From Diadema setosum (taxonomy: Eukaryota > Echinodermata > Echinoidea > Diadematoida > Diadematidae), in contig NC_092692.1 in NCBI RefSeq assembly GCF_964275005.1, positions 18,253,506 to 18,317,505 of the forward strand: a DNA stretch of 64,000 bases. Reading direction: 5' to 3'. Positions within the stretch are counted from its first letter, which is position 1, and each line of letters begins with the position of its first letter. Shown here one piece after another: positions 3,412-62,775 of the stretch. The notes under the pieces are model-generated. The model was not told where the DNA came from and did not search any database. It saw nothing but the letters and a program-made list of their open reading frames with translations. A program made the position numbers and the translations under genes.

Positions 3412-3761
3412 ATGGATAGACCTGTTTCAGCATCGTCCCGGGATCTGAAAATGGAAGCTAAGCACACTGTGGGATTTTGCGACCACGTTCACCTCGGGAA
3501 CTTCTCTCTCGACGAGAACCGAAACTACTGCGACGATCACCGCAACCGTAGGTACTTCGTGAAGCCCGACCCACGGCCGCATTTCGATCTCTTGGAGGGT
3601 CACGCCGCCTTCGTGGATCGCTACCACCCTGCTAGTCCTGTACCGTCGGACGACGTCGAAAGCGAGGTAAAATCGCTCGACGTCGTACTCAAGTGGATAC
3701 GGGATCATTCTGGGGAGCTGGAGAAGAGAGGTTTGATCACCACTTCGACTGGGAAAAAGAG
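3412..3761 (+). CDS. DXO: DXO-like exon 1 (residues 1-116, start of 117)
   Basis: Starts at ATG 3412 and ends with AAG-AG before a GTTAGC donor (phase 2). It carries the N-terminal FSLDENRNY segment, the FDLLEGHAAFVDRYHP stretch (human: FDLRDG...DRYQP) and the SLDVVLKWIRDH helix. The frame is open upstream to 3283 without another ATG. Confidence 0.88.
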
Positions 3762-6700
3762 GTTAGCTTTCTTAGTTTGAAATGGAATCAGCACTAGACA
3801 ATAGGCCTGTTTTGTGTCTATAAAAGATCAATGAAATGTTGTGAAGCTGAGTCTTGTACACTGTCATGCATTTCCATTATTTGTGTCACATTTTCTGATC
3901 TGTTGTAATATGTTTGTTGTGGATCTCGTAATTATAATGCAATCTTAGTCACTATAGCGTCTCTGAGGTCGTAACAATTTAACAGATAATCAGTGGCCAG
4001 ATGGAAGGTGTTAAAAACTGTTCGGACGCAGATTATATGATACACTGGCAGGGTTCTCTGGAAATGATGTCTCTGATGTGCTCAAATAGCCCTGTGACTA
4101 GTGTGAGTGTGAGCAGTTGATTATGAAAGCTTGATTTGTAGTGAAGTTATACGAACGGATTTTGCTGAAGATCTTAATCAGGAGATACCTTGGTCAGTGG
4201 CGGTAAAATGTGACTCATTTAATGATTGGTGTTGTAATGATCAGGTGTATTAATGATCCGGATGAGGGTCCTAGAGATTTTCTAATGGATAGAATAGGCT
4301 GTATGACCATGCGGAATCGGGCGCGGATGTTTGCGTTCTCCGAGTACCAAGTAGTTTCCCCCCACCCCCCCCCCCCCCCCCTTCCTTCCTTGCTCGGAAC
4401 AATTGGAAGAAAAAACAACAACAAAGAAACATGTGATCAAATCTTTAAAAATCACAAAGGAATGCCTACTTGAACGGAATAGGCCCAGACCTACTGAGTG
4501 ATATGTAAAACAGAATATATGAACGCTGTCTTCTCTTTAGACAGTTCAACATGATTTATCCCGTCGATTATCCAAACTAACGCTGAATTAGCCTCATCTC
4601 GATTGAAAGAATATTCTAATTCACCTGCAGTGTAGGACCAAATGCCGTTAACATGACAACAGAAATTGTGAATAGGCCTTAATTCACTTGCTTGGTTTTG
4701 GTGCTGTTTTTTGTTTGTTTGGGGTTTTCCGTTAATTTCTATTTCAGTCATAACTTACAGGGGGGGGGGGGGTTGTTCGGTATGCCTAACAATATTAATT
4801 TGTTATGCACGGACACAGCAATGCGCCTGACTCATCGCATAACCCATTGAATTATCTTTTCTTCTTATTTCGGATCGAAGCCCCCGATTATGGCCGTTAA
4901 AGATGTACAGTGTTTTAAAACCAAATAAGTCTATAAACCTTTTCTTACGCTTGTAACAGAAGATAAAGTAGATAATGAAGATAAACAGTAGTCTCAAATC
5001 ACTACAAAATATACAATTAACAGATCAAACACTTTGATATGGCTCGTCATCGATCCCGTGAATAATAAAAAAAAAAGTATGTACATTGTATTTAAATTGT
5101 TCGTTCCGGCTTCTCTGCTATTTAATTATGCATAAATACAGGTTGTCGGTAGATTTTATCACCAGACGTGGCGCGCTCCATGACTTGATGAAGTCGGCAC
5201 ACTTGAATAGTCGATTCGAATTCCTGGCCACCCGATTTAGAGGCACCTGCTACCTCGAGCAGATTGATCTACAGAACCATGAACATCAAAACGATCCCCA
5301 CAGGATGCGGGTCTACAGTGGGAAGAAATTCGCTCAGTACTGTTCCAGTGGTAAGTATACCGCATCACTGGATGAGTATAGGCAAACTTCTAAGAAGAAG
5401 AAAAAAGTACCACTTTAATCCCTAACTTTGCAAATATTAATGGTGATAACTCTCGATGACTAATGGCACATCCCATATCCATGAGTATAACTATAACCAA
5501 AGAGAGTTACTACCCAGATTGCCACGTCACGTTTCCATCTCTATAGTCGCGTTTTCAATACGATTTCAACATTTTGAATTAAATCGCATACATTTTGTAC
5601 AGAGAAAATATTGTTTTTAACCCTATTTCCATTTTATTCCACTGACGTTTTCTATTTTCCTCAAAATAATTTGTATGATTTTGTTCTATATGATTATTAC
5701 AGTGTAGCCTACTCCCGATTTATAACGGACACGGTTATAACGAGATTCTCGTTACAACGAAGTAAAAATTTAGGTAAAAAAAAATATCATCTATTTATAT
5801 TTACATACTTTACTGTTCTGCTCTAAAGAATTTCGATGATTATAACGAAAGAAAACTGCCGGTCCCGAGGACTTCGCTATCACGGGAGTTGTCTAGACTG
5901 TCTAGACCTGTCTAGACCACGATTCCAAATCTTCATTCACCCGCAGAGGATGGGAGTAAACCAGATACAAGTCTACCGATCAATGACAACCTGGCTTACG
6001 AAGCGGTGATGGCAGCGCGATGTGGGGACTTTCGTCTCATGTTCAGCGTCGAGGTCCACGCGGAGGAGCGTGATCGTGGTCGGATTCCACTTCCATTTCG
6101 TCGACCACAGCACCTCAAGTACGTCAACATTCGCACGACTCGCGAGTTCAACGGCCTAACGGATATTCAACAGTCAAAGGCGTTCTTCAGGTCAGACCGT
6201 TTTACTTTGATTTGACAAACCGATCGCAGATTTCCCACACCAAATCATTTTCCACTTGCGTATCCTGGTGATGTAAAGTTGCTTTGACAATGACAATCGT
6301 AATATACAACTCGAATGCATAATGATATTGGATGCGATTCGTTATAGACAAGTTCTCAAAAAAGTTACTCAATAACAGATGCAACGATTTTGGGAGATGT
6401 CAATACCCGCTTTACCAAAGCAATATAACCCATGCATCTTCTTTTTAGCATCACGGGAATGTGACCAACAACAACAACAAGCAAACAAACTCGCGACAGA
6501 CTAATAATTTATCTTGATATCTGGATGTATCTTCATCATAGTGACTTCGTTAACCGGCAGAAAGCTTAATGCGTTACCGTAAAAAGCGCTTCTCGACTTC
6601 CTTTTTTGTTTGAAAGTTTTCTAATAATCACAATTACACATTTTGCAGATTGTGATAATCGCATATTTAAAGGCTGTTAACCAAAGTTAAAAAAGAACTC

Positions 6701-8048
6701 ACTTATTACTAAATTGTCGCATTCCATGCGGCTATTAAACAAAGACGAAATCATGGCGCGTGAGCAACAATTATGAAGTCATTTTGTCATAGTCCGCTTG
6801 CCAGCTAGCAGACGGTGCCATTGTCGGTTCCAGTGCTCACTGACGAAGCAGAGACGACACTTCCCGGTCAAGGTACGAAAGGATAGCCGAGCGAAACTCT
6901 AACCGCTTTGCAAATAGAGTGGTATAACAATATAACATTGTCAATGAATAAAACTCACGTGAATTATCATACCTTAATTCTCTCCCATTGATACAGGAAG
7001 AAACTCTTCCAGTTCTGGTCCCAGAATCACATTGCGGGAATCCCGCGCGTGATACTGGGTTGGCGGGACGACGCGCAACACGTCATCACTAGAGCAGAAA
7101 CATACAAGACGGACGACATTCCCGATATCGACTTGGTAGGGATGCAGAATTTATAGGCCTACGTACCCTACGTGTCCCTTGCTTTCCAGGTTATTTTATT
7201 AACGAACATCTATTCCTATACAGTGTATCTTCATTGAGTGGTTGTAAGCTTGTATACTTCATGTCGATACACGAATCCTATTATTCTGAAAATAAACATG
7301 TATTATTTCGTTGTTGGTTTTTTTTTTTTACCTTTTTTTTTTTTTGAGTGAGTCCGGATTGAATTAAAATCATGGGCGTAATCAGTGCTTGAGGCATTGC
7401 ACGAAAAAAAAAAAAGATAATTGCAGTTCATATTCCGCAGGTTCGTAAATTCGACAATGAAGAAAAGTTTGTTATTCTGAAAATACGTCAGTGCGAAAGT
7501 GAAATACATTTTGTAAGGTTAGTTATTCCGAAAGTTCGTTAATCCGAAATGATTAAGTTTGATATTCCTAAGGTTCGTTAATCCGAAAATGATTTTATTC
7601 CAAAGCTTCGTTTATCCGAGAATGAAATAAGGTGCGTTGGGATACGCACCCTCGTTTCGTTTGTGGATTAACGAACATTATTTCATTTTCGGAGTAACGA
7701 ACCCTATTTCATTTTTTTATTAACGAACCCTACTTCAGAATCGAGGTAAAGGGAATTTGCATGGGTCGGAATAACGAACCAAGCATAACTGCTTCCTTAT
7801 AGCTGGATATGAATTTGTAATCGAACCAGATCTTCTTTCTTTTTCTTTTCTTTTTTTTTTTTGTTCGTCTAACTGACTATAAATCAATTTGTGTACCAAA
7901 CTAGATTCTGTTTCTATTTTCAAGTGTCCGTGGAAGCCACATCGATACTTCACCGCCGTGACAAATCTTCTGTCGGAAATCATGCGCATTGTGTCTATCG
8001 ATGATCCAAGGTTAGTCAGTTATCAAACCTTAATGGTTTGTATAATAT

Positions 8049-8092
<44 letters not shown>

Positions 8093-10450
8093 CGTACGTG
8101 TTTGTTTGTTTTTTCCCCGTTGCGTTATTTCATACCTTTACCTAAAAATGCTTTTAATATCGATTCGATTACATCATGGACCTAATACATATGGACATTC
8201 ATCGTATCGTTAATTAATTCATGCACCTTACATCTCAAAAGAGCCACAAAGACATTTTAGCATGCTTCACTGCTTTGATCCCATGATCGTCGCCGCCAGC
8301 AAGCCGGGAGAAGAACAAGACGGAGATTCGAGAAATCTAAAACTATATGCGCAAAAGAAAATAACTCACCAAAATCAAGTAAAGTGAATGTGCAGTTGTG
8401 GGGTATGTTAGGAAATCATATACCTCGAACAATTTCGCTTGGGAGAAGCAGGCAATTTTTAAAAGAAAGCTAACATTTTGGCAGAATGATTGTCATTTGT
8501 GATCTAAATATTTCACTTTTCCGCAGCTTATTCCAGAGCAAAAAGGGACGGTAATGGTAGAGAACAGGGGGGTGTTTCATCAACGTTTGTCAGCGCTGAC
8601 TAGTTGTCAGCGCTGACAATTTCAGCAAAATCCTTGGTTTTGATTGGATGAGATGCTCTGGTCACTGACTGTTACTATGGTGATTGTCAGCGCTGACAAA
8701 CGTTGATGAAACACCCCCAGGTATATCTTGCCATTAGGCAAGGTCTTATGCGTGTGCGAAAATGTGCGAATCAACAATTACCCATCTTTTGACATAAAAT
8801 CTGTCATGATCTCAGGTTTGCTGCTCCTCCTCATCTGTATTTATTCAAAGACATTTCCGTCTGAAAAAGGCACATCAGCGAAACAAGACTGAAATGAGGG
8901 AAACTATTCTTTTGTTAGTGACGATACATGATCACACAATCGTTATTGTCCAGACACCTGAATGTACTCATTAAGATGCACATAATCATGTGTCGGTGAC
9001 GATCATTACATCAAACAAGACTGCCGTGAACAGTCCATGTATATTAGGTCCATGATTACATACACCCCGTCAAATGCTGCAAATCACACTTCATGATTTT
9101 AAGCGTTTATGTTATTATAAACTGTCATACAGGGCGGTGGCAAATATTTACGCTGAACAGAGTTATAGCAGATTTTGTCTAAATTAAGGAATGTATCCGG
9201 TCAAGTCATATTAGAAGTGTAAACACTGAGTATTGCCAGAACACAACATGGCAGAGACTTTCAAAATTCCGAAACTGTTTACGGTAAGAGACATTTCATC
9301 GTCTTTTAGAACGAGCATTAGGAAAATTACATTTATTTTTCTCAATATTTAACATAATCTCGATGAAATCTGAAATCATGAAGAAAACTCAGATAACACA
9401 AATTGTCAAAGAGAGCATAATTCCTTTAATTCTCTCAGTTTGATTTATTGATTATTCCGTATGTTAGACGTTTCTTTCAAAGCGCTCTTTTGGTAATGAT
9501 CGTGTTTTGTGATTAGATATGAAATATAATCAGCGTGAGATGGATAAAAAAGATTAGGTCAAGCCTGCAACCAAACGACGCCCATCTTATGCAGCTCACA
9601 AAATCATATGTCCAGCGAGGACTGAAAAGAAATGCCATGTTATTGCTTTTGAACCCTTGCTTTGTTCGCCGAGTAGCAGGCACCCAAGATGACGTTCTTT
9701 GCTGATTGGCAAAGATGTCCGCAAACTAATTGTCAGTGAATAAAGACTACTTAATCCTCTCCCCTAATCCATAGTGTCACTGTGGTCTTGACAACTGAGT
9801 GGGCTTATGCCGCTTCACCAATTTGGTCAATTTTGGAGGGACTACTAAGTATTTAGTAACTGAATGATGAACAAGCTTGCTAAGCTACACAGATGCCTGG
9901 GCTCTTAAGGCTTATCGTTTTGGGAGGACAAAAGACATGTTTGCAGGGGATGCCGATTCTGCATTGAATCCGTCAGTATACCCGTTAATATAACCAAGGA
10001 GGTTCTCTCATACCTCCTTGATATAACCATGCTGTAAAAGCACACATTTTCGCGATGCAGTAATTTTTCGCGCATTTCATGCTACTTTTGGCTAGCGCAA
10101 ATTCTAAAATCCGCGAAAGTATCTTCACAATTTTCTCTGCACATTTTGAATGGGTTGACAATCGTGTAGCGCGAATTCAAGAACCCGCGAATGTGTCTTT
10201 GAGCCGCTCAGCGCGAAAAAGTAATCGCACGAAAATTATGGACGTTTACAGTATCTGATAAAATTTAACATTGTGTCCTATTCGTTTTAGCGTCGTTTAT
10301 CATCTGATTCTGGAGGAGGTGCCCAGGGTATGCCTACCGTGGTCCGAGCTGGCCAAACGCCTTGAGGAGAGGCGATTCGAGGTGCGGAGGAGAGATGGCT
10401 ACAAGATCGTCCCCGATTGGTTCACTCGGGATGTCGTACCTGGGAGGTAA
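3412..10450 (+). CDS. DXO: DXO/RAI1-family protein (Dom3Z-like), six exons, probable pseudoenzyme
   Basis: CDS joins 3412-3761, 5142-5350, 5947-6190, 6997-7135, 7925-8010 and 10291-10450. Every join keeps frame and uses GT-AG introns, giving 395 residues plus TAA; human DXO has 396. The family removes incomplete 5' caps (NAD, unmethylated or triphosphate ends) and degrades the RNA 5'-3'. Family landmarks are clear: LGNFSLDENRNY near the N-terminus, RFRGTCYL (148-155), GKKFAQY (177-183), MFSVEVH (218-224), KYVNIRTT (244-251), FWSQNHIAGIPRVILGWR (274-291). Against remembered mammalian DXO the metal-binding residues are largely lost: GYKFE reads GKKFA, GEVD reads VEVH, ELKTS reads NIRTT. Arg148, Glu222 and Gln277 remain. 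The ATG at 3412 is the first in-frame ATG and has G at -3 and +4; Met14 (3451) is a possible alternative. The frame is intact and splicing regular, so this looks like a maintained gene that lost catalysis, not a decayed copy. Confidence 0.9.
5142..5350 (+). CDS. DXO: DXO-like exon 2 (residues 117-186)
   Basis: Acceptor AATACAG, donor GTAAGT. Encodes the first catalytic-core strand with the conserved arginine (RFRGTCYL, Arg148) and the GKKFAQY motif, where the family normally has a glutamate at the Ala181 position. Confidence 0.88.
5700..5889. mobile_element. TTATAACGAAA-family MITE copy, right end degraded
   Basis: Shares the start CAGTG...CTCCCG, the TTATAACG repeats and the core AAAACTGCCGGTCCCGAGGACTTCG with the fuller copy at 14830-15335. 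The right terminus is shortened after ACGGGAGT. Lies in intron 2 of the DXO-like gene. Confidence 0.75.
5891..5917. repeat. Three GTCTAGAC palindromes in tandem
   Basis: GTCTAGAC at 5891-5898, 5900-5907 and 5910-5917, 29 bp before the exon 3 acceptor boundary. The octamer equals the published Smad3/4 consensus palindrome; function here is unknown. Confidence 0.8.
5947..6190 (+). CDS. DXO: DXO-like exon 3 (residues 187-267)
   Basis: Acceptor ACCCGCAG, donor GTCAGA. Contains the degenerate metal-binding motifs: Glu222 is kept but the next acidic residue is His224, and the Glu-x-Lys motif reads Asn247-Ile-Arg249. The surrounding framework (FRLMFSVEV, KYVNIRTTREF) aligns well with the family. 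Confidence 0.88.
6997..7135 (+). CDS. DXO: DXO-like exon 4 (residues 268-314)
   Basis: Acceptor TGATACAG, donor GTAGGG. Encodes KKLFQFWSQNHIAG followed by PRVILGWRDD, matching the family segment HKLLKWWAQSFLPGVPNVVAGFR, including the conserved glutamine (Gln277). Confidence 0.9.
7436..7782. mobile_element. Fold-back repeat of GGTTCGTTAATCCGAAAATGA units
   Basis: Left arm carries several degenerate copies of GGTTCGTTAATCCGAAAA, right arm the reverse complements (GGATTAACGAAC, GGAGTAACGAACC). The arms meet at a central hairpin GGTGCGT-ACGCACC (7632-7651). No coding capacity; probably a non-autonomous DNA element in DXO intron 4. Confidence 0.7.
7925..8010 (+). CDS. DXO: DXO-like exon 5 (residues 315-342)
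   Basis: Acceptor TATTTTCAAG, donor GTTAGT; 86 bp. Encodes an amphipathic helix segment ending ...MRIVSIDDP, equivalent to the QSTVVQDDP stretch of human DXO. Confidence 0.82.
8051..8095. repeat. (TG)n microsatellite
   Basis: TG run in intron 5 of the DXO-like gene, 40 bp after the exon 5 donor. Confidence 0.97.
8568..8718. mobile_element. 151-bp hairpin MITE with 33-bp perfect terminal repeats
   Basis: Bases 8568-8600 are the exact reverse complement of 8686-8718 (starting GGGGGTGTTTCATCAACG). The palindrome GTCAGCGCTGAC occurs three times. Perfect arms suggest a young insertion, in DXO intron 5. Confidence 0.88.
10032..10251. mobile_element. CTGTA-ended MITE, copy a
   Basis: Begins CTGTAAAAGCACACATTTTCGCG and ends CGTTTACAG followed by TA, with CGCG-rich palindromic interior. 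It ends 39 bp before DXO exon 6. Confidence 0.65.
10291..10450 (+). CDS. DXO: DXO-like terminal exon (residues 343-395, TAA stop)
   Basis: Acceptor TTCGTTTTAG. Encodes the C-terminal strand and tail and stops at TAA 10448-10450. The sequence AG-GTAACC at the stop could also act as a splice donor, but the total length matches the family, so the stop is preferred. An exact X-box match overlaps the stop. Confidence 0.82.
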
Positions 10451-26700: not shown

Positions 26701-29700
26701 AATTTTTTGCGCTAGGCCGGGTCAGAAGATTTTCGCGTGTTTTTAATTCCGCGGAATCAAGACATCACGCACAAGAACGTATGGCAAGCAAAAATATTCG
26801 CGTGTTTTTATTTTCGCGCTAGTTTCTGGTTGCGCGAAATGCGTGAAAATTTCAACACCGCAAAAATTTCCACTTTTACAGTATGGGGAAATAATGTGCT
26901 ATTGATGGAATTTCTCCATGAAGCTGTGACCAACATCTCCACATCTCGGACAGGAAGAGGGAAGGGAATTGCCACAAGGGAATCAGTCGAATAACGAAAG
27001 TCAGAGGTCAAAAGATGGGTCAACTCACTCGGCGACGATGGCCTGGTAGCGCTCGGCGTCCATGGAGAGCTCCCACGTCTCCTGCTCCACGTCCATCAGT
27101 CTCTGGCGGATGCCCATCTGGGCCTGGAAGTTGGTGATGAGCTGGTGCCGGAGGTTGTCCATCTCCTCCCGGCTGTGCTGGCTGGACAGCTGACCCAAAC
27201 CGGCTGTAAGACAAGGTCACAACCAAATGACTCATGTCAGTGAACGGGAAATTGCCTTTAGTTGCAACAAAACATCACACTGTGGGGCATCTCAGACGTG
27301 AATACATTCTTCTTAGTAGTACATGGCATAAATTCTTGCGGCAAGCAGTTGCTGATTTCAGATTCATGATCTGGAATTATATCCCAATAACATAAGTTGC
27401 AACAACTGTAACTCACAATTTTAGCAATCAGTGTGGTAACAGGTTGAAGTCAAGAAATCTGATTCTGGCAGCAGTAATTCTTATTGAGGAATTTTACAAT
27501 TACACAGCTCGTCTGTGCACATGACACGTCCTCTACAAAACTTCAACCTGAGAGGCACAAGAATTGCATCTCACAGAAATTGTTTGAGATTCATCGAACG
27601 ACAAGAAATAACACAAATTCAAAAACACATTTTCATTTCTCCATTCAAAAAAAAGAAAAAGAAAAATGAGGTGCAGTTCACTGTAGAATACGATACACCT
27701 ATCACCTTAACATCATCACCCTAAGCTGAAATATTTAACAAATGTAGGGCCACATCCTGCAAACTCACAGTGCATGCTCTCCGTCTGTCGATCACTCTTC
27801 TGGTGCTCAGCAATCTTTCCCTTCAGTCTCTCTATCTCTTGTTTCAGCTCTGTGATGATGTTGGTATACTGGGCGATGTGGTAGTTCACATTCATCTGGT
27901 TGGGTTTCACCTGTCATTGGATAAGAAGGTCACACAAAAAAAAACTGATACTATAAAATTTTCAAAATAACATCAAATCTACAAATATACAATGATATAC
28001 ACACCTCAGTAAATTCTAATGGCCCTGAAGTTTTTATAAATTATCAGTTCATATTTTTTTTTGTGTGTTTTTTTTTTTTTTTTTTTTTTTGTCTACAACT
28101 GCTGTAGCCCACTTATAGGATGATTCATGGTGTTTGGCCATGAGTGGACTGATTTATAAATGCAGTTTACTGCTTCTCCTAGGAGAAAACAGACTCTCTA
28201 ATATCTGCTCGCAAAATGAAAAAAACAACAACAACAACAACAAAAACCAACAAGATCTAACTGCAAGCAATATTGACAAGAAAGTATCAGCACAATATTC
28301 ATAATCCATCGCAGGTTTGATTAAGCTCAATTCAGTATATTCAGCAAAGGGCTTTAACCCCAAACCTACCTTGAGTTTGATCTTCTTGGCTCTGTCAGCA
28401 TACAGCAGTGTATTCTTCGACTCCTCAAAAAGGTAGTCTGCGGGACTAATGTTGGCAATCATCACGGTGCGGCAGTTCCCCCCGAGGGAGTCCTTTAGGA
28501 GCCGCGTCAGCTTGCTGTCGCGGTAGTTGACGTACTTGCCTCCAAGGCACAGGGCGTTGATGCAGTTCCCGAGAGCAAGGAGGGAGCGGTTGATGTGAGC
28601 GCCCTCTATCATGCGCTTACCACGATTCTGTGCAGGCGGAAAGGTAGTCGACAGGGAACGGTCACTATTGGTGTGTACTTGCAAGATCAAACTCAAAACG
28701 TTTGTGGTGTTAATACAACTAGCACACACAAATCTAAAAAATAATTCATATTCACATATACATTGTATTCCTCAATGATTTGTATATAATTATCTATTCC
28801 TCATTAATTTGAATTTCACACCTGGTACACTCCAAGAGACAGAAGCATATCCCCACGTGAAAATTTTAACTATTAACACCTAATGATAAACTATCTACCA
28901 GCAGAATGAAATAAATTAAAAGATAAGTTAAATATCATTTTTCTTCAGTATGTTTCTCATTTTTTTCTTTTAAAGAAAACAACATCTCATGCTATTCACT
29001 GGAAGCGTCTATGGTTGCTGCTGTCAAACAATCCACACATAGGAGCTTCCTAGAAGCAAAATTTATCCAATGTCTCAAAACAAACAAAGGTTACCCCAGA
29101 GAATTATATGCAGTGTTGCCACTCAACGATATGTGGTATCTTTCCTTAATTTGTTGACTTGTTGTTGACTGACTAGATACTTATTATTCCAGCCATTACG
29201 GATATGAATGTTGTTTCTCCAAGGGTGGGGTAAAATATTTCTAGAGACAAAGAAGAAGACAAACTTCTACAATGAGACAGAAAGTCAGACATGAGAATGA
29301 AAAAAAAAAAATCCAGTCTTACCTTTGTCTGGGACGCCCTCTCTGAGCCAGCGAGGTCAATCATGAAGAGCTTGCCGATGCGGATGGCCTGCATGGTACC
29401 CCGCACTCGGCTCCTCTCCCTAATGGTCACCTGGAGAACGGCATGGGAGCGGGAGGAGGTCTTGTTGGCGGCCGTCGGCTCCTGGGTCCGCTCCTTGTTG
29501 CCTTGCATCAGGAGGTTCATGATCTATGGAAGATATCAAAGTGGGAGAAAAAATTAATAAAAGTGATGGACTTTGTTGTTGTGAACACTTTCTTGTTCTG
29601 TGTTTACTTCTTCACAGTTTATCCAAAATTGTTGGTTGACTAGAACGGCCTCTGAAGAGTGTGACGGAAAAAGAAAAATGAACACTTTCGTCCATTATAT

Positions 29701-32700
29701 TAGTTTCTATTGCTCTGTAGAATAAAGTCATACTGTAAAACAAGGAATGTTCACGTGCATTTCAATTTCACGAATTTCGCGAGAGGCAAGATTTGTGAAA
29801 TTAAAATGCACGCAAAAGTTCTTGTCTACACTGTATGCATTGAATGTTAGAGGCAACTCGCGAAAGTTTCATGCTGCAAAAAAGGCTGTAGGCTGCAACT
29901 CGCAAAAAATTTCACGCCGCGAAAATATCATGTTTTACAGTATATCTGCATATTATCCCATTTTTTCTTTGTATCCTTCTCTTTCACATATTAAATAATA
30001 TAACATATGTTGGTCATCTTCAGCTGTGAGATATTATTGAGTCTTCTAGGGTTTCTAGAGCAATATTACTTTACACAAAACAATGGATTCAGAATTTTTT
30101 TATCAAAAAAATCATCATTACATGCAAATACAAACATACATTAAGCAACAAAAGTAATACATATTAGAACATTTGCCCTGTAGTTTCAAAGTAAACATTT
30201 TTTTCCAGCCTTCATCCCTCTATGGAGACTGAGAAGTTATTTCAACTATTTAAGCTTGAACACTGACCTCTGTTGTTGAAGTGGTGGATATCTGCTTGAT
30301 GCCAGCCACTTGCACGTTCCCTGAGGCATCCTCCCTGAGATCGAGGAACCCCGTTGATGGATTCAGCAGATCTCTGATCATCTCATTGTAGATCTGGAAG
30401 GGAATAAGTTTGTAAGATGAAGGACAATGAAAGATTAGGTGGGTTCATACTGAATACGATGAAATATTTTGGACAGTGATTTGTACTACAACTGCAAATA
30501 CATCATGAAACATATCGCAAAATACCAAGGTATTTATGGAGATAATCCAAAGTTGGCATGAATATACATCCCAGATTTGAGTGTGAATTGTATCAAGAGA
30601 TACCACCGATCATACAGTGGTATATTCTTCAAGTGACCCAACACACTTCCTTCACACTGTAGGAGATATGCGCATACTCAGTGATCACCCCGAGAGAGGT
30701 GTACTTTTAGACCACAAATACCATGGTATTTTGTGAATGAGGAATGGTACCTCATGAATTACCAAATCCAATCATAATTAGCATGTGTAAAGTGACAAAA
30801 AGTAACTTATGTGTCAACTATCAGAATAGCTCCAAGAAAATTGCAGATCAATACCCTGTGGGCTAATGTGAACAGGAATATGAATTAGCCCACTAATCTG
30901 TGAAAGGGAAAACATCTTGAGCTTCGATTTCAATCAGGCTGATGTGAAATGGCCTACAAACAAGAGAAAGACCATATGTGACCCGCTACAACAAAATGGT
31001 CCTAAAGTCGCGCACGGTCGAAGCCATGAAAATCGAGTTTGAAGTTAGAGCATCAAAATTGGTCAAAACTTACGATTTTCTGAATTTGACATATCATTAG
31101 AGTCTGACATGTCTTCTATCATCTGTCGAAATTTTGAAGCAAAATGATGAAAGGAAAGACCAAATAATAGCGTTTTTCTGGGCCATGTTTTTTGGCGTTT
31201 CAACGAAGCAGAAACTGGTTTGAACATTTGGATTGAGCGCCACACAAAGGCTCCGCCCCTAACAACGACCAGCGTGATCTCATTGGTCAGTTTGCCGCTT
31301 GCCGCTAACCGAAGCGTGAAGCTCGCACACTGCCCAGTTGACTGGTGCGTGCTGGCGGGGTTCGCTATGCCCAGCCGGCCCAGCCGCTTCTCCTGGCATC
31401 CTGGTCACTGATTGGTCGGTGAGGAGACCGCCGACGCTGTGTTTGACTGAGCATTTCGGGGGTTGCTAGGGCTTACCTTCTATTGTCCGGAGGTGAATAC
31501 TGACTGCGTGTCCCGTGATCGTGATTGCGTCGCAAGGAGAACTTTTAGGGCGCTTTTCTCGAAACTGTGATTTCCCAGACGTCTTGACATGCTCTCTTTT
31601 AAACATCGATATCTCCGCATCCGATTATTTTTATAAGATGTGTTATATATCAATTTAAAGCAGAAGATTAGGGAATTGTGTCATGCAATTTTCAAATAAT
31701 CGACCTCGCCCGACTTTAGGATCATTTTGTTGTAGCGGGTCACATATTCACACCATAAACAAACAAAAAGATGAAATACATTAAAGTGTGGCATCACATA
31801 CCTCTAGGTAGGACATGGTGACATTGAAGATCTTCTCCTCTTTCTTGGACTCCATCTCCGTAAAGAGATCGTTGAGTGCCCTCGCCATGATGCCAGGTTC
31901 GTGGTCCGTACCCAGCATGGTATACGTCTTCCCTGCACCTACAGGGCAGAAAGGAGACGTGAGGGAGGGGTATTAAAACCATGTACAAACACACACAGAC
32001 ACACATACACACACACAGAGCCTGCTTGCTACAATTCACAGTCCCAAACTCGATTCATTCAATCGACGCAAATACACTCTCACACACGCACACAACTACC
32101 AGTGTGAACACATTTTGCGGCACATACATGTACCCAAACACAACCATGAAATGACATTGTAAATGAAGAAAACATTAGGAAGAGTTATGACACCAATATT
32201 GCAGCTAAAATGAAACAATACACAGATACTAAATGCAAAGTTTGCAGTTTACCAATGAGACAAATTCTATGATTGTGATTTACGTTTTTACTATCATATG
32301 TTTAATACATTGATGCATTGTGTATAATTTGAATGTGATTCTGTGATCCCGTTTAAAAAAAAAAAAAAAAAAAATCTTTGAAAGGCTAATGGCAAATATA
32401 TCAATGTACTGTATTAACTGCACTCACAGCTCAACAGTATCAACTGCTGAAATTCAACAATACTGATGGTATATAAACACCTTGGGGAAAGTCTAAATAG
32501 CTACAACAAAAAGGAGAAAATACAGGGGAAAAGAATAAGGAGACCATTTTTACCACTCAAATGGATTATGGTGGAAAAAAATGGAGAAAAAAAATTCTAC
32601 TTTGACTGACTGCATCCTTTAAAACAACTGTTATACCTTCAAACATTGAACATATAACTCTATGAATTCAACATTTTTTTTTTGGTCAAAAACTACCAAC

Positions 32701-35700
32701 TTTCACCTCCACATCAAACTAGGCCAATTGCTCACACAAAGTGAATTACTTAACATTGTAAATACGTATTACGATAATGGACACTGTGATGGGAACAAAT
32801 TAAAATGCTCGGTGCTGATTGGCTGGAGCCAGCCATTCTGCCACGACAGACGAGGACACAGGTATCATCATCCCTCTGCGCTCATTAAGAGTCGCGACCT
32901 TAATAGCCAGATATCAGGGCTATTTGTCTTCCCTAAGAGCCTTCTCCAATGGTTTCATGATAAAAGGCTGACAAGGTTTGCCTATCCAAGGTTTCATCCT
33001 CCAAACTGGAGACAATAACAGACAAAAGCCTCATGTAAATTGCATGGATACAACATCAAGGTTTTGACTCTCACCTAGAGGAGTTAATACACTTCCAGGA
33101 CTATCTACCTGAGGATGAATTGGAGTCTACATTTAAAGTTTGACTATCACAAGTTTCACAGAGACTCAAACTACACTGTACCCCACTTTGGGTGGGAGAT
33201 CTCTCGCTTTGAGGTGACTTTCTCAAGTCTCATGCTCTCCCCCTCCCAAGTTTGAATTTCTCCCGCCCTGGCTACACGTCTCCCGATTAAGATGTACTTT
33301 CTCCCACTTAAGATACAGTATTCTCCCGCTTTATATTACTTTTATCATGATATACAATGTATTAAAAATTATGGCTAAGATAGTACCAGAGTGCACCATA
33401 CTTAGGAGCTTCAATGGGCCCTGGACCCCGGCCTCAAGGGATGTTGCGCGTCACGCTCGTGATGTGCGCTATACCAACAAACATTGATGTTGTGCCTACA
33501 GAACTTGTATGTTTGCAAAATCAGAGTCTCCCATTTGCTAAAGGGTTTCTGCAGGAGAATAATCCTTACTTAGATGGTTTGGGTTGGAGTCTCTGGATAC
33601 TTGGTATCTTCTTTGTTTTTTTAGCATATGGAAGGTCTTTATGTGTGCATGTTATGCGCCCTTTACATATTGTATTTGTGTAAGAAAAGAATATTTTGAT
33701 AAGCTATTCTGCTCTCTGTTTGAAAATTATGGTAACTGCACAAGCCATGAAAATATTCCCCTTTGTTCTGTTTTTTTTCCATAATTAACTTCCAAGCAAT
33801 GTACATGGACACATGGTATCATACATGTACAGAGGTTTTATGGTGTTAATAACGTGACTGGATGAATAATGAATGCATTTTGCACGTGCGTAATTGAAAG
33901 ATATCTGTTTACAGTGTATATAATGCACAGATGAATGATGCCATTATGAGGTATGAATGCAAAAACAACCAACTAACTGACTGCACATTTTTTTCTCTTT
34001 CTGCCATTATATAACAACCTTGTTTTGGGGTAACTTTTTCTTTCCCCTCAATGACGTGACGTCAAAAGATGCAAAATTTAATTTCTTCGCCACACCTGTC
34101 TGACGAAGCAATAATACCCTCGTTTAATCAAAATATGACGCCAATGTATCGAGTCAGGTGTTTCTGCTGGCCTGGTACTCCTTATGGCAAAGGCTGGCTG
34201 ACGCAAGCACCTCATGTATGGGGGCTATCAATGAGAGCGGGGTAAGCAGCGCTCCCCGCCCCCAATGCGCGTCACTTGCTGTGATTCCATCACGCACTGA
34301 GAAACACCTGTCCTGCCTAATGGCGGTGGCAGAGCAGAATATGACGTGCACACACCTGCCCAATTTGCCAGCACATTTATGGAGGGGGGGGGGGAATCTT
34401 TTTGTTATTTTGTTATTATAATTGTGCCTCAATTTTTCCTTACCATTGTGTGTGTGTGTGTCGCATTTACAATCTACGCCTACTCTCCTGTGCAATCTGG
34501 GTAGTGAAATGGAAACTCGCTCAACAACATATATGGCTCATCTCTCTCGGAAGGTTAGCTGACAAGTAACGAGAGAAACGAGGCGGCCGGGTGTCTGGTA
34601 TATCAAAGCAGCCGATGAAAGCTGCTTTTGTCCGCGGCATGCTAATTACTTTATGGCAAGGATGAAAGAAGGGCAATGTTGTGATACATAATATGTGACG
34701 CGACATGTCCAAACTCTTCCTCCATTTGTTAAAAAAAAAAGAAGACGAAAAAAAAACACCAACAGGCTGATGGCACTGAATACCGGAAGAAAAGAGTTGG
34801 AACGTCCTTAGCTCTCTCTCTGTTTTTAGCTCTAACCTGCTTTCACCTCAAGTTGTTTGCTCAAGCTCTATGTTTTATTATTTTGCTGGTTGCCTTGGAG
34901 ATGAACACAGGCTTTAAACATGGCAACACACACAAAAAAAAAGAAAACAAACCTAACGACTCATTCTACACTTTGTTTTGGAGTAAAGAGAGATGGCGTG
35001 CCATTCAAACATAGCTTCCATTCTCATTTCCATTCATCTATTCATTCATGGAGTGCTCAGCAAGCTCGATTTGATAACAGGAAACTACATTGTTCAACTG
35101 TTTGACAAAGACGGGTTCTCATACATATTCATTTGTATCGGTATCACATTGCCATGGCAATAAACACCACATGAGCAAGCCAATCTCCTTTTGAATGATT
35201 AATCACTCTGTTTGGAACGAAAACACACAATCGATCACCCTGAACTGAGGTTGGACGACTATTACCGGCCATTCAGATTCTTGAAGGCCTGCAATCTCAT
35301 TTTAATACATTCACAGTGTCCTCTTTCCCACGACTGAAATTTAAAATGTAGTAACAGATACAGATTGCTCTCAAGTTTTTATTTCTTTTTTTCAAACTTA
35401 TTGAACATTTCACATTCACACAATATTTAAGTTTGTTTTTTTTTAAGGAAGGAGTTTGCATGGTGGTTTACATAGCATATGCTTGGGTTTTTCAAAACCT
35501 TTAAGTTGTTTTTCAACCTTGGCTAAATGATGCATGTCTGACAAAGAAAGTGGCTTGGGTGACCGTAAGTAGCAAATCATTTAAACTGTCAGTACACATT
35601 GCGCGAAGTTAATGATGGAATCATAAAGGGCTGTGGTTACTATCTTGTAGAATGTTCATATCCCCCTTGTGTTGCATGGAAACGTAGCAGGACTGGACAG

Positions 35701-38449
35701 GAAAACAGTGTACGCAAGACATTGTTGCCAGGAAATGGCTGTGATTGATATATAAACAGCAACAACAACACACAACAGTGATTACTAGACACAGAGAATC
35801 ACATTCTAATGTGACAATGTGTACATGTTTGTTAAAGCACACGCACACACAAACACACACACACACACACACACAAAACATACCCATGCTATTTAATCTT
35901 ATTAACGATACTCCTCTAAAATTATTTCTATCTTTAACCCTATTCTAACTGGGGGGGGGGGTCAAATTGACCCCCCCCTCGACGTTTCGCGCCACGATTC
36001 CGCAACGCGCGAAAATTTTGCCGCGTCGTTTCATGACTTTTTTCATTGAAGTCTCCCGCATATTTTGAGACCAAATTTGCGACGTCCGGGTACACCGTTC
36101 TGAAGTTATGCAATGTTTTACATATGCATGTCAACCCGAAAACCGCTCAAATTCATGATTTCGTGTGCAAATCCAATGCAAACTGTGTTTTTTTGTTTAA
36201 TTGATATAAATTAGATTATTTCAACTTTTAACATTTGAAATAAATCAATTCTAATGTAGATAAGCTTGAAAAAGTGCCTCCAACAAATTTTGGCAAAAAA
36301 CAATAGAAAACAAAAGATCGAAAAAACAATAAAATACATAAGAAATTAACAAAACAATAAAAAACAAAAGAAAATTATTTTGATTGCACTATTTTTTTTA
36401 CAAGAAAATTGTTTGGTGTGTCTTGAGGAACTCTGACACAAAAATTTAATAATCCTTCAGTCCTTTTGATGGAGTTATAGGCGAAAATATGATTTCATGC
36501 GTTAATTTGCATAATTAATTTATTAAAAAATATGAAATCAACATTTTTCTATTGTATGACCATGTAATCTTGTAGTTGACATCCGGCTCTATGTTCAGGT
36601 AAAATTTTGCGGCGATCGCGCGATCGGCGGCCGAGATCTGAAGGGGGGGTCAAATTGACCCCCCCCCCCAGTAAAAACTTGGTCTCAAATAGCCCAGTTA
36701 GAATAGGGTTAAGCCATACTTCTCATCTTCTCAAAGGAAAGTGCTTTTTAAAAATAAACAGATATCACAACTTTAAATGTACATACAAACACTCACAACA
36801 AAATGGCTAGAAAATGAAATAAAAAGACATCTTTTATGCCGTCAGCCTATCATGCTACGATGGACACCGTCACAGGAAACTCTTCACTTCAAAGACGAAT
36901 CATCAAGCATGAACAATTTTAGATTGTCGAGCTGCTATCTGGCATTCTTGAAGACTCTATCATCGTTGGAGAGCAAGGCACACACACATATTATGATTCT
37001 CTGGCGAGACATAGTATACTCAATTACTAATATGTGCGGAGACTTTCCCCTGTCTGGCTAGTATTGATTTATGCCAAGATCATCAAAATACCGGTCATCA
37101 TCATCAACCCTGATATTGAGAATTTATGAATTTTGCAAGACATTGGCTGAGAGCAAAGTCTCCTTGATGCCGCAAATGTTTATGTTCCAATCCAAATCCA
37201 CTTGAGGCTGTTGCTGAAGGAGGAAAAAGGGGGAGGGGGCAGACAACTCAAAGGTCTTCCTCTAAATAGCATGCTACCACTCCTGGAGTTTAGCACACCA
37301 ATGACGCACTTTCGGTTGCTTATGAATTCATTTGCAATTACCACGGCAACATACATAGTTGCTCCTAAGTCTAACCATGAGAGGTAATTAATATGACGGC
37401 ACTGTGTTTTTAGAACCTGTCTGAAAGCAGGAGATATTCATCAGGGCAGCGTAGGGTGATATCTGGTTCAGTATCAAGCCTTGTTTGAGGATGAGAATCA
37501 AATACTATTGTGTGTGTGTGTAAGCTGTATGTATTTCGGGTCACGCACCAATTGATTAAAAAAAAAAAATTTAGGTCGATCAAACATTGCCGATTGTATA
37601 TTGTTTATACATTCAAGATGAATGCTTTTGTCATGTGAAATTATAGAAATCAAATAAAGATTATGGAAAAACAAACAAAAAAAAGTGTAAGGTATTTTGT
37701 TTGTCATCCAAGGTACTGTAATAACACTACAATTTTTTTTTGTAACCTTTACATTTTGTTGCCCACCACAAGCATTTCACCTCATGGCAAGTTTACCATA
37801 ATAGCTATCAGTCCGAGCTCGCATTAGAGGATTTGTTTGAAGCATCTTCTCCCCTTCTGCATCTATTTTTCATGAGAAGCTACTATAAACCTCTGAGAAA
37901 AGCTTCTTCACAAACAAGAACAATAAAACCAATCAAGAAACAGAGAAAAAGACAGGGAGGAAAAAAAGTAAAGTGCAAAAAAAAAATGGATGACTTGAGA
38001 CTATCTGGGCAAGTGCTTCTGCTATTCCAAATTTGTGCAGCACTTTCACAAAATAACACTTAAAAAAAATCATTTTGACACATATGATGAGAAATTGGAT
38101 TAGTCTGCGTATTGCCAACCACTCTATCAAAAAATTTGCTTTTTCAATTATTTTCCATGTAGCGACTAAGATCGTACAGTTAATGTTCTGTTCTTCCCAA
38201 CTATTATGAAATTTGAAAGCACACAAATTCAACTTATTGAATTAAATCTTGAGAGAGTATCAGTGAAGACAAACACCACCTGAATGGTTCCTGGACTCAT
38301 TGTTGACAGTGTCAATCACAGATTGTGGGTATTTAAGACCAGCATTCATGCACTTCTCTGGTTGGAGGTTTTATGCAACAGCATGGAGTATTTCAACCAC
38401 TCTACACACACCATATCATTCACAGGCAAATAGAAAGTAAAATATGAGA

Positions 38450-38497
<48 letters not shown>

Positions 38498-41400
38498 AAC
38501 ATTCTAATGACAGGCTTCAACTGGGGATATGATAGTCTGCTCATGGTACAAAACTGTAAATGGGCATATGCCATTATTTCTTTCCGAAAAAAAAAAACAA
38601 AAATCTATATTCATTGAAAACCATCAAAAAATATTTGAATTCAGTTTTATAGTAAGTAGAAAATTAGGATTCATATAGTGTATAGGAGCATACGCAAGAG
38701 TCTAGGATACATGTAAAAATCATAGAATTTCCCCATTAAAATAGTGCGTGAAGTACTATTTGTCCACATCCAGTTACTAAATACACAGAACGGGCATAGA
38801 TATCCCTAGGGCCTTAAAATGGACTTTTTCATTTGTTTTACCATAAATTCTCTGAATGAGCGTATCAATTATATGCCCGTGCCTTTGAAATGTATCCCAG
38901 TTGGATAGAGTGAAACAATATATGATAATATCCCCAATTTAAGCCCCTTATGAGAAAACACAAGTCCATGCACACAAACACAAATTTACAACACTGTCCA
39001 TGTCCACAAACACACAACTTTTACACATTTACCAATATGTATTTGTATAACAGGTGATTTACAAGTATACAGGGCAATTAGAGTGCACTAGGAATGTTCC
39101 TGAAGTGCTCTTAGAAACTCTGTATGAAAAGACAGTGGAGTGCTTTAAAGTTTAGGCCCCTCTTAAGGTTAAGTATGTACAGAAGCACTCCGGAAACGCT
39201 CAAAAGTCCCTATAACGATTAATGGTCACCAACATTTAGAGCGCTCCTGAAGTAGTATGCGGTACGCACTGTGCACACAGGCTACTGTATATGCCGAATA
39301 TTTTGTGAGGTTTCGCGAATTTGCGAGTCAGGTGGTAATCGCAAAACTAAAAGACGCGCGTAAATGATGACTCTGATCTCAATATGAATGTGACGCACAC
39401 GTATACACTTTCTCCGTTCAGTACAGTACTCCATTATCGCGAATTTAACCACTTGCGAAATCATCGGGAAGTCCCGATTTGCGGAAATTTAGACTCGCTA
39501 AATATATGGCATATACAGTAGTTCCCGCACATGCGAATGTCACCCTGAAAGTTATGCCCTCTCAGCCAATTGTGCGCGTGGTCTCTGCCCACTTTAATTC
39601 TCTGTATGAACAAACACAAAGGGTCATAGGTCGAAGCACTCCAGGAGCACTCCTGCACCTAAACTTTGTGTATAAAATGGAATATATGAACTTTTCCAGG
39701 CATGAGCTGAATCATCATTTTCATCACATAAATTTACAAATCCCTGCTACATAATTCATACTTTTGCTCCGCAAAACTGGACTTCTAATCGAACTCTCCT
39801 TGCGGATACGAGCGGAATAATTTACTAATGGCATTTCAAGTGTTCCGCCTCATAAGTTTTTCACGTGCCGGGGCTCACTGCTTGACACGATACGACATTC
39901 GCATAATTGCCTTTCTCTAAAGGGTGCAAAACAGCTTCAGCACACTCCAAGCACTCTAAATTGCGAGTCCATGCCGAGGTATCCCCGTGCTACTGAAAGT
40001 GTGTTAGCATGACTGATCCCTTAGTGCCTTGTCTGTTCTGTTTTGTTTTGCTAGAAAAATAAATATTGACAGAGCTGTCTAGTACCATTATAATATGGTT
40101 CTTTAAAGATTCTGTGCTTAATTATCTGTCCCTGACCCCTTCTCCACTTTCAAGAATTTCAGTGAGTCTGTAGGAGCTATACATCTATAATCTACCACTT
40201 CTCCATCTCTATTATATGACCTTGCATTGCAAAACCCCCTACGTAGAGTGGAATGGGTCAATTTCCCAGTCAAAAATATGTGCTCTATGTCGAAAACATT
40301 CATTTCTAAGCTTCGACTATTGCCATGATAAACTATCCTTTTACAGATGAAGTCTGGGAGTATATGATCACATAAATGTAATATATTTCTGATTGCTGTA
40401 TAAATGCAGACCCACATTTCTTTTGCAGACTTTCTTTTTCTCTATTTCCAACTCTTTGAGGTGCTTACAGAGCTGTATGGTACATACATGTAAGAATCCT
40501 GTAAAAATCTTTTTTTTTTTTTTTTTTTTTGCTAGACAGACAGTGATACTTTTGGTATTCTCTGAAACAATCATGCATAGGATGTACTTGATGGGTATGC
40601 AAAGTCTTAGTATAATCTGATATCATATACTAGCTGTTACCATGGCAATTTAAGTCCATCTTTCATGTGCTCACAACCAAATATGAGTCAGCACACTTTA
40701 ATGCACTCAGAACTTTAAAAAAATCCATTTTCTCTCATGTAGCCAACCTAATGAATGCATTTTCAATCTATTCTTGTTTGTTGGGAACATATGATTATGA
40801 ATAGCTACTGTTTTTGAATGATCATCATCAGTTTCTTGAAGTTAATCAAACAGCAATATAAAGGAAAGCACTGTAAGATGCATAAGACAATAGAAATTGC
40901 ATTTATATGCAGGCATGCAACCTTATCCCACAAATTGTGATGAGGTTGGCTGGTGAGCAGTTGAGACATACCTGTGGCTCCATAGGCAAAGACAGTGGCA
41001 TTGAATCCCTGTGTGACACTCTGGATCAGATCTTTGGTAGTCAGCTCATACACCTCCTCCTGAACATTGGAAAGACAGACAAAACTCATTAATGCTTCCA
41101 TATTGGTTCAGCATTCGCATGGCTTCATCATTGTGATAAGGGATTGTGCAACATGTTCGGGCACTCATGTTATCGTCATCATCTATAGGCATATTGTGTT
41201 TCCATGGTGATAGACTATTTGGAGGATTTCTAGCTACTGTAAAACCAGATGAATGTTTGGGTGCATTTTAATTTCGTGAGAGCCACGATTGGTGAAATCT
41301 ATTGTACGCGAAAATTCTCGTCTGTACTGTATGCACTGAATGCAAGTGTCAATTTGCAAAAATTTCATGCCACAAAAATATCTTGCTTTCCAGTACCTGT

Positions 41401-61015: not shown

Positions 61016-62775
61016 AACAGTTCAAAAGTGTTTTCACCAAGGAAACACCCATACCGAATGACTTACTACCGGTAACCTCAGACTTTAAAGAAATGGAGGA
61101 TATTGTGTTTACATCAAAGGGTGTAGAAAAGTTGCTTTGTGGTTTAAAGATATGCAGTACAAAGCCCCTGGACCGGATGGTATAACTCCACGAGTCTTGA
61201 AGCAGCTGGCAAACATTCTGGCTCCAATTCTTTGTAATATATTCCGGTTGTCATATGAATTAAGTGAAATACCAAATGATTGGGGTGAAGCAAATGTTGT
61301 ACCAGTCTACCAGGTAATCGATCTACTCCTGTAAACTACCGCCCCATTTCGCTGACATGTATTTGCTGCAAACTAACGGAACACGTTTTAGCCAGCAAAA
61401 TTATGACGCACGGTGACGAAAATAACATTATTTTCCCCTGCAATATGGCTTCCGTAAGAACATGTCATGTGAACAACAATTACTAGGTTTCACAAGCGAT
61501 CTACACAGGAACTTGGATGAAGGGCGTCAAACGAATGTTATAATCATGGATTTCTCAAATGCTTTTGACAAGGTTGGACATGAGCGGCTTTTACGTAACT
61601 GGACTACTACGGTATCAGGGGAAAAATCTTAGATGGATTCAAAGCTTTCTCAATGGAAGAAGTCAGAGGGTCGTTTTAGATGGTATTAAGTCTCCTCCAA
61701 TAGCGGTAGGATCTGGAGTGCATCAAGGGTCGGTTCTTGGGCCTTGCCTCTTTCTGCTTTACATTAATGACTTGCCAGATGGTCTAGCGTCAAAGGTTCG
61801 CATTTTTGCCGATGATGCAATTTCCTACATGACCATTGACAATCAACATCATACGCAAAATCTTCAAGAGGACCTAAACAAAATTTGTGACTGGGCGAAA
61901 AATGGATGATGGTTTTGAACACAGATAAGTGTAAGGTTTTGACAATATCCAGGAAAAGAAGAAAGGTGCAACACGTGTATCATCGATAACGCCCCTCTTG
62001 AATTTGTTGAATCCGTGAAGTACTGGGTGTAACCATCACTTCTGATTTGAAGTGGACCCAACACATCAAAATACTGTCAATAAAGCCAACAACATCCTTG
62101 CATTTTTGAGACGCAATCTTCGCATGAAATCTTCTGATGTTTAAGCCACAGCTTACAAAACTTTGGTTCGACAAATTGTTGAGTATGCTTCCACAGTTCG
62201 GGACCCATCTTCCAAGAACCTAATCCACAAAGTGGAAATGGTCCAGAGAAGAGCTGCGAGATTCACTTTAAATCGCTACCATAACACCTCAAGTGTCACC
62301 AAAATGCTGCAAGAACTTGATTGGACCAGGGAGGTGGACTGATTGGACCACTCTGGAACAACGCAGAGAAAATGACAGACTAATTATGATGTACAAAATA
62401 CACAATAATCTTACTCCTCTTTCAGCACAGGACTATAGTATCAAACAGGTTACTCTGTTGACGAGAGCCTAGCACAAAACTCCTATCAGGTACCATACTC
62501 GAGAACTGAATCGCATCGCCATTCGTTCTTTCCAAGAACTGTAAGGAACTGGAATTCCCTGTAGTCAGAAATTGTTTCAGCGCCATCTGTGGGATCATTC
62601 CGAAACCGTCTAACGGTTGATCACAGTGGCTAGTTATTTTCGTCAAATTTTCTATGTGCTTGTAAATATCTGTAAATAAACTGTATTGTAATGTAAATAG
62701 CACAGTCTGCAAGAATCTTCAGTCTATTGAAGGAGGCAGGACTTAATCAGAAGAAGAAGAAGAAGAAGAAGAAGA
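61016..62775 (+). mobile_element. 5'-truncated LINE with degraded reverse transcriptase, (GAA)n tail
   Basis: Fragments of one non-LTR reverse transcriptase in shifting frames: YKAPGPDGITPRVLKQLA (61146 on), NYRPISLT (about 61336), MDFSNAFDKV (about 61548), SGVHQGSVLGPCLFLLYIND with IFADDAISYM (61703-61836), then the C-terminal VQRRAARFTLNRYH segment (about 62240). FADD is the catalytic motif. At least three frameshifts and some stops make it inactive; the endonuclease is missing. It ends in GAAGAAGAA at 62752-62775. The domain wording fits the CR1/L2/Rex1/Jockey group; the exact clade is undecided. Confidence 0.88.

What the first reader, a model, noticed from the sequence alone, without database searches (positions are those of the whole stretch)
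3412..10450. DXO/RAI1-family gene that has kept its frame but lost most catalytic residues
The six-exon model is full length (395 codons) and aligns through the whole family fold, yet the metal-binding motifs are altered: GYKFE to GKKFA, GEVD to VEVH, ELKTS to NIRTT. Only Arg148, Glu222 and Gln277 remain of the usual set. Intact splicing and full length argue that the protein is maintained, so it may be a non-catalytic regulator, such as an Xrn2 partner (RAI1 has a structural role with Rat1) or an RNA 5'-end binder.
Basis: partly seen in the sequence, partly recalled or inferred. Interest (0 to 1): 0.78.

Follow-up and report, generated by a model that had tools for sequence, protein, structure and literature searches.

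The report
Sea urchin decapping enzyme without catalysis
Near a normal RNA-decapping enzyme gene, what appears to be a sea urchin genome carries a related gene whose protein has lost most of the metal-holding residues needed for cutting but kept those that grip the RNA end, and selection appears to preserve it, which suggests that it binds RNA ends instead of cutting them.

Summary
The window encodes an intact six-exon, 395-residue DXO/RAI1-family protein (WIN) that has lost Glu192, Asp236, Glu253 and Lys255 (mouse numbering). The residue map needs correction: Arg148 is not the motif I arginine; Arg126 is, and it is kept, as are Lys270 (motif V) and Arg291 (motif VI). So the metal site is mostly gone while the RNA- and cap-contact residues checked are complete. 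The same genome (912.7 Mb; bindin present, so probably a sea urchin) has intact-looking DXO genes, the nearest 13 kb away, and a second degenerate paralogue, C, on another contig: WIN's closest relative found (42.5% identity), same exons and phases, same three metal ligands replaced, same contact residues kept. Neutral decay of WIN is rejected: synonymous sites are saturated, and dN/dS = 1 on its branch costs 31.3 (2 delta lnL; 0 of 200 simulations reach it). Best reading: an old, maintained DXO pseudoenzyme that binds RNA 5' ends without hydrolysis, working like Cutoff and eIF3d but not shown to be either. Expression and other species could not be tested.

The parts
3412..3761 (+). Coding exon 1 of the DXO-like pseudoenzyme gene (WIN), start ATG 3412; 52 of 93 aligned residues identical to paralogue C
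5142..5350 (+). Coding exon 2, with motif I Arg126 (5167-5169, kept) and motif II GKKFA (5320-5334, metal-site Glu lost)
5947..6190 (+). Coding exon 3, with motif III E222-V-H224 (6051-6059, Glu kept, Asp lost) and motif IV N247-I-R249 (6126-6134, Glu and Lys lost)
6997..7135 (+). Coding exon 4, with motif V K270...W275-S-Q277 (7001-7024, kept) and motif VI G289-W-R291 (7058-7066, kept); 139 nt, same length as exon 4 of paralogue C
7925..8010 (+). Coding exon 5; 86 nt, same length in paralogues C, A and B3
10291..10450 (+). Coding exon 6 and stop codon

Best explanation
WIN is a maintained pseudoenzyme of the DXO/RAI1 family. Shown here: of the four metal ligands in motifs II, III and IV only Glu222 is left, while motif I Arg, motif V Lys and Gln and motif VI Arg are kept; a second gene, C, on another contig shows the same pattern; the WIN coding sequence is under purifying selection. 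Inferred: the protein folds like DXO, cannot hold the two catalytic metals, and binds RNA 5' ends (5' phosphate or a non-canonical or incomplete cap) without cutting, either shielding them from the intact DXO and 5'-3' exonucleases or marking them for another factor. Published precedent: an E192S/E234Q/E253Q mouse DXO mutant, designed with reference to the non-catalytic homologues eIF3d and Cutoff, gave strong density for bound 3'-FADP (PMC7293010, passage) with no metal in the structure (PMC13213243, passage). The shield-or-mark step is a guess by analogy with what is proposed for Cutoff.
For: Motif table against mouse DXO and the genome's own intact-looking paralogues. By published role, Arg132, Gly133 and Gln280 contact the phosphates of the cap, Asp236, Glu253 and Glu192 or Glu234 hold the metals, and Lys255 may activate water (PMC13213243, passages); motif V Lys and motif VI Arg contact the RNA backbone (PMC4513879, passages). 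In WIN and C the contact group is complete (R, G, Q, K, R), and of the four metal ligands only Glu234 survives in both. WIN-C: 149 of 351 residues identical; dN 0.50 and omega = 1 costs 167 (2 delta lnL); third bases of shared fourfold codons equal in 17 of 59, close to saturation. WIN branch omega 0.05; omega = 1 costs 31.3 and 0.5 costs 26.0; 200 simulations under omega = 1 gave at most 6.4. Same six exons and phases in WIN, C, A and B3.
Against: No expression, binding or structure data. No orthologue from another species was available, so selection is read from paralogues of one genome with saturated synonymous sites; several branch lengths hit their bound, so the omega values are bounds, and the 0.05 on WIN being lower than 0.23 to 0.29 between A and B3 is probably an effect of saturation. 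The omega = 1 test on the C branch is weaker (7.0; 6.4 with fewer free parameters) and was not simulated. The replacing residues differ between WIN and C (A/Q, H/A, N/D), so catalytic loss in their common ancestor is likely, not certain; if loss was late in WIN, part of the constraint predates it. C is less altered: Glu253 became Asp, also an acid, and Lys255 is kept. No predicted structure was made.
Confidence: 0.68

Rival explanations
1. Decaying pseudogene: an old DXO duplicate that drifts neutrally and has not yet met a stop codon.
For: Fast divergence: 31.6% identity to mouse DXO against 45.8 and 47.2% for A and B3, and a WIN+C path about 2.5 to 2.9 times as long as that of the catalytic genes in a five-sequence tree. 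Catalytic residues lost.
Against: Omega = 1 and 0.5 rejected on the WIN branch, parametric control 0 of 200, synonymous saturation with 42.5% of residues kept, open frame and GT-AG introns, WIN not clearly faster than C in relative-rate counts (changes unique to C / to WIN: 39/27, 30/35, 29/24).
Confidence: 0.07
2. Maintained protein-protein regulator: WIN keeps the fold as a scaffold for another factor (an exonuclease or the intact DXO paralogue), and RNA binding is incidental.
For: 63 alignment columns are shared by WIN and C and differ from A, B3 and mouse DXO (columns where those have gaps included), 24 of them in exon 1; exon 1 is the best conserved exon between WIN and C, 52 of 93. Fission yeast Rai1 is a partner of Rat1 (PMC4513879, passage).
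Against: The five RNA or cap-phosphate contact residues are all kept in both WIN and C although only 42 of the 128 columns invariant in A, B3 and mouse DXO are kept in both. That argues that the RNA site is still used. No test of partners was possible.
Confidence: 0.17
3. Still an enzyme, with a rebuilt or weakened metal site (Glu222, His224 and Asn247) or a metal-free activity.
For: Glu222 and the phosphate-binding residues are kept; His and Asn can be metal ligands in other nucleases (recalled, no call). In C, Glu198, Asp216 and Lys218 remain, so C is the better candidate for residual activity.
Against: Three of four metal ligands and Lys255 are changed in WIN; C carries different replacements (Gln157, Ala200, Asp216), so no shared new metal site is visible.
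Confidence: 0.08

Closest known systems
DXO (Dom3Z) / RAI1 family of decapping 5'-3' exonucleases
   Same: Full-length family match and fold-wide alignment; motifs I, V and VI kept; same exon phases as the intact-looking DXO genes of this genome
   Different: Motifs II, III and IV broken: Glu192, Asp236, Glu253 and Lys255 replaced
Cutoff (Cuff) of Drosophila, a Rai1 homologue that lacks key catalytic residues (PMC11125864, passages)
   Same: Catalytically dead DXO/Rai1 relative; proposed to bind RNA caps
   Different: Cutoff acts with Rhino and Deadlock on piRNA clusters of flies; no link of WIN to piRNA or to those partners is shown.
eIF3d cap-binding domain (PMC10165153, passages; called a non-catalytic homologue of DXO in PMC7293010, passage)
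   Same: DXO-like fold used for cap binding without catalysis
   Different: eIF3d is a separate Pfam family (PF05091) and this genome has its own eIF3d gene at C8:14.21-14.23 Mb; WIN matches only RAI1 at E <= 0.001
Expanded DXO homologues of C. elegans (eleven, EOL-1 among them; PMC13129544, passages)
   Same: Multiplication of DXO genes within one genome, some in tandem
   Different: The passages I read treat EOL-1 as active; whether any nematode paralogue has a broken metal site I did not see

Membership tests
DXO/RAI1 family (homology) | Match to PF08652 above the curated cut-off over the whole profile | tested here: met
   172.7 bits against 26.8, profile 5-332 of 333
DXO/RAI1 family (homology) | Exon phases shared with an intact-looking DXO of the same genome | tested here: met
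   six coding exons, five introns at matching phases in WIN, C, A and B3
Catalytic DXO/RAI1 enzyme | Motif I Arg | tested here: met
   Arg126
Catalytic DXO/RAI1 enzyme | Motif II G-Phi-X-Phi-E | tested here: not met
   GKKFA in WIN, GKKFQ in C
Catalytic DXO/RAI1 enzyme | Motif III EhD | tested here: not met
   EVH in WIN, ETA in C
Catalytic DXO/RAI1 enzyme | Motif IV EhK | tested here: not met
   NIR in WIN, DVK in C
Catalytic DXO/RAI1 enzyme | Motif V KX4-Phi-h-Q and motif VI GhR | tested here: met
   K270...W275-S-Q277 and G289-W-R291, K236...W241-S-Q243 and G255-W-R257 in C; the 'h' of motif V is Ser in both
Catalytic DXO/RAI1 enzyme | Decapping, pyrophosphohydrolase or exonuclease activity | not testable with these tools
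   bench assay needed
Cutoff (non-catalytic Rai1 homologue) | Loss of catalytic residues with the gene kept | tested here: met
Cutoff (non-catalytic Rai1 homologue) | Orthology to insect Cutoff; complex with Rhino and Deadlock on piRNA clusters | not testable with these tools
   no Cutoff sequence and no interaction data at hand
eIF3d | Match to PF05091 (eIF-3_zeta) | tested here: not met
   only RAI1 matches at E <= 0.001; the eIF3d gene lies elsewhere
Pseudogene | Neutral evolution (omega = 1) or broken frame | tested here: not met

The most novel reading that the evidence does not exclude
A pseudo-DXO lineage about as old as the split between sea urchins and vertebrates, kept in the urchin lineage and lost in vertebrates, whose proteins are dedicated non-cutting readers or shields of RNA 5' ends; in effect an echinoderm counterpart of Cutoff and eIF3d that arose on its own. 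Hint for the age: where A and B3 agree and differ from mouse DXO (110 columns), WIN and C match the urchin residue no more often than the mouse residue (21 against 22, and 24 against 23). Without an outgroup this cannot be rooted, and fast evolution could erase the signal.
Probability: 0.25. Interest if true: 0.75.

Novelty: new variant of a known kind. Interest (0 to 1): 0.56.

Why it matters
The papers I saw name two non-catalytic relatives of DXO, Cutoff and eIF3d (PMC7293010, passage); one is a cap-binding translation factor and the other is proposed to bind caps. A third case, apparently independent, in what is probably a sea urchin and with an intact-looking enzyme 13 kb away as a natural control, would suggest that the decapping fold is repeatedly turned into an end-binding reader, and would give a clean way to ask what a metal-free DXO does in a cell.

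Tried and rejected
Neutral decay: rejected. Restoration of the motifs by other exon ends: rejected, the changed motifs lie inside exons with conserved flanks. Recent tandem copy of the neighbouring intact DXO: rejected, WIN is closer to C on C2 (42.5%) than to A (31.1%). Retrocopy: rejected, introns and phases are shared. A private C-terminal extension of WIN and C: considered, because the first alignment left A gapped there, then dropped, since the Pfam profile is covered to position 332 of 333 in WIN and in C and the end of A can be aligned there by eye. eIF3d identity: rejected. More members of the degenerate pair: none found with 208 residues of WIN or all of C, but these searches score only the best candidates and miss some known short exons. 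Relatives in viral contigs: 54 pattern matches, none a relative. An outgroup for rooting was not obtained; a five-sequence tree cannot root the pair. Literature: three papers hold DXO, sea urchin and decapping together, none with these terms in the title or abstract (listing only); no relevant title among the 15 listed of 3174 nor a DXO pseudoenzyme paper among the 15 listed of 158, listings only.

Full report
What is there. The window lies on contig C8 of a 912.7 Mb genome in 102 contigs.

The genome's DXO set. A search of the whole genome with PF08652 gave 18 exon-level matches. A and B3 keep the motif residues checked (GYKFE, GEVD, ELKT and motifs I, V, VI). Between A and WIN lies a gene with ECSIT domains.

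The second degenerate gene. C has six exons with the same phases as WIN; exons 4 and 5 have the same lengths, 139 and 86 nt. It is an open frame of 359 codons and matches RAI1 at 176.9 bits. WIN and C share 149 of 351 aligned residues (42.5%); each shares 28 to 32% with A, B3 and mouse DXO; A and mouse DXO share 45.8%. Whole-genome searches with 208 residues of WIN and all of C found no third member; these searches score only the best candidates and miss some short exons.

Which residues are lost. The six published family motifs are: I Arg; II G-Phi-X-Phi-E; III EhD; IV EhK; V KX4-Phi-h-Q; VI GhR (PMC4513879, passages read). In mouse DXO the first metal is held by Asp236, Glu253 and the Leu254 carbonyl, the second by Glu234 or Glu192; Lys255 may activate water; Arg132, the Gly133 amide and Gln280 contact cap phosphates (PMC13213243, passages). 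In the alignment, Glu192 is Ala in WIN and Gln in C; Asp236 is His and Ala; Glu253 is Asn and Asp; Lys255 is Arg in WIN and stays Lys in C; Glu234 is kept in both. Arg132, Gly133, Lys273, Gln280, Gly292 and Arg294 are kept in both. Of 128 columns invariant in A, B3 and mouse DXO, WIN keeps 60, C keeps 54, and 42 are kept in both. So retention of the RNA-facing residues is above that background, though these residues are also among the most conserved of the family and the comparison was made after seeing them.

Is it maintained? Pairwise codon likelihood gives WIN-C dN 0.50 with saturated dS; omega = 1 is worse by 167 (twice the log-likelihood difference) on 351 codons. At codons of shared fourfold families, third bases agree in 17 of 59, 0.29 against 0.25 expected at saturation. 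GC3 is similar, 0.63 and 0.66. A branch model on 324 codons of WIN, C, A and B3 gives omega 0.05 on the WIN branch; fixing it at 1, 0.5 or 0.3 costs 31.3, 26.0 and 20.5. In 200 data sets simulated with omega 1 on that branch the largest cost was 6.4, against 31.3 for the real data in the same reduced fit. For the C branch the cost of omega = 1 is only 7.0. Several branch lengths hit their bound, so omega values are bounds; that WIN scores below the 0.23 to 0.29 of A and B3 should not be read as stronger constraint. Relative-rate counts show no clear excess of change in WIN. Simple decay of WIN is therefore not tenable on this evidence, with the caution that all codon sequences come from one genome.

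How it most likely works. With three of four metal ligands and the catalytic lysine changed in WIN, hydrolysis is unlikely. With the phosphate and backbone contacts kept, binding of RNA 5' ends is likely. Precedent: a triple mutant of mouse DXO (E192S/E234Q/E253Q; two of its three positions are among those lost in WIN) gave strong density for bound 3'-FADP; it was designed with reference to the non-catalytic homologues eIF3d and Cutoff (PMC7293010, passage). Cutoff lacks key catalytic residues and is proposed to bind caps of piRNA-cluster transcripts (PMC11125864, passages). By analogy WIN would shield or mark certain RNA ends, perhaps in competition with the DXO encoded 13 kb away. That last step is inference. 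An Xrn2 partnership was not tested and has no support here.

Age. In a five-sequence tree the WIN+C lineage joins where the urchin and mouse DXO lineages meet (with two pairs and one single this is close to the only shape open to it), and WIN and C match urchin and mouse residues equally often where these differ. This hints at an old split, but the tree cannot be rooted.

Novelty. DXO pseudoenzymes are a known kind (Cutoff, eIF3d). A retained metal-dead pair beside intact-looking DXO genes in a probable echinoid did not turn up in the listings of my literature searches, which show the top rows of a library that holds only part of what is in print. I file it as a new variant of a known kind.

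Noticed in passing
window 8568-8718 (intron 5 of WIN): Perfect 33-nt inverted repeat with 85 nt between the arms, 151 nt in all; looks like a miniature inverted-repeat element.
   Followed up: no
window about 28154-41107, minus strand: Stretches of a kinesin motor domain on the opposite strand downstream of WIN, three ORFs with Pfam Kinesin matches.
   Followed up: partly
window 61544-61909 (+): Reverse transcriptase fragment (RVT_1, 35.0 bits), probably a retroelement remnant.
   Followed up: no
L010:790-3563, about C8:18247289-18250062: A gene with ECSIT_N and ECSIT_C domains (named for a Toll-pathway intermediate) lies between the intact-looking DXO A and WIN.
   Followed up: partly
C15:23635283-23706241: An exon 1 of the intact DXO type lies about 68 kb from exons 2-4 of the same type; either one gene with a very long intron or two fragments.
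   Followed up: no
paralogue A (C8) and B3 (C15), N-termini: A and B3 carry a basic N-terminal stretch of roughly 70 residues that WIN and C lack; it may be a nuclear localisation region.
   Followed up: no
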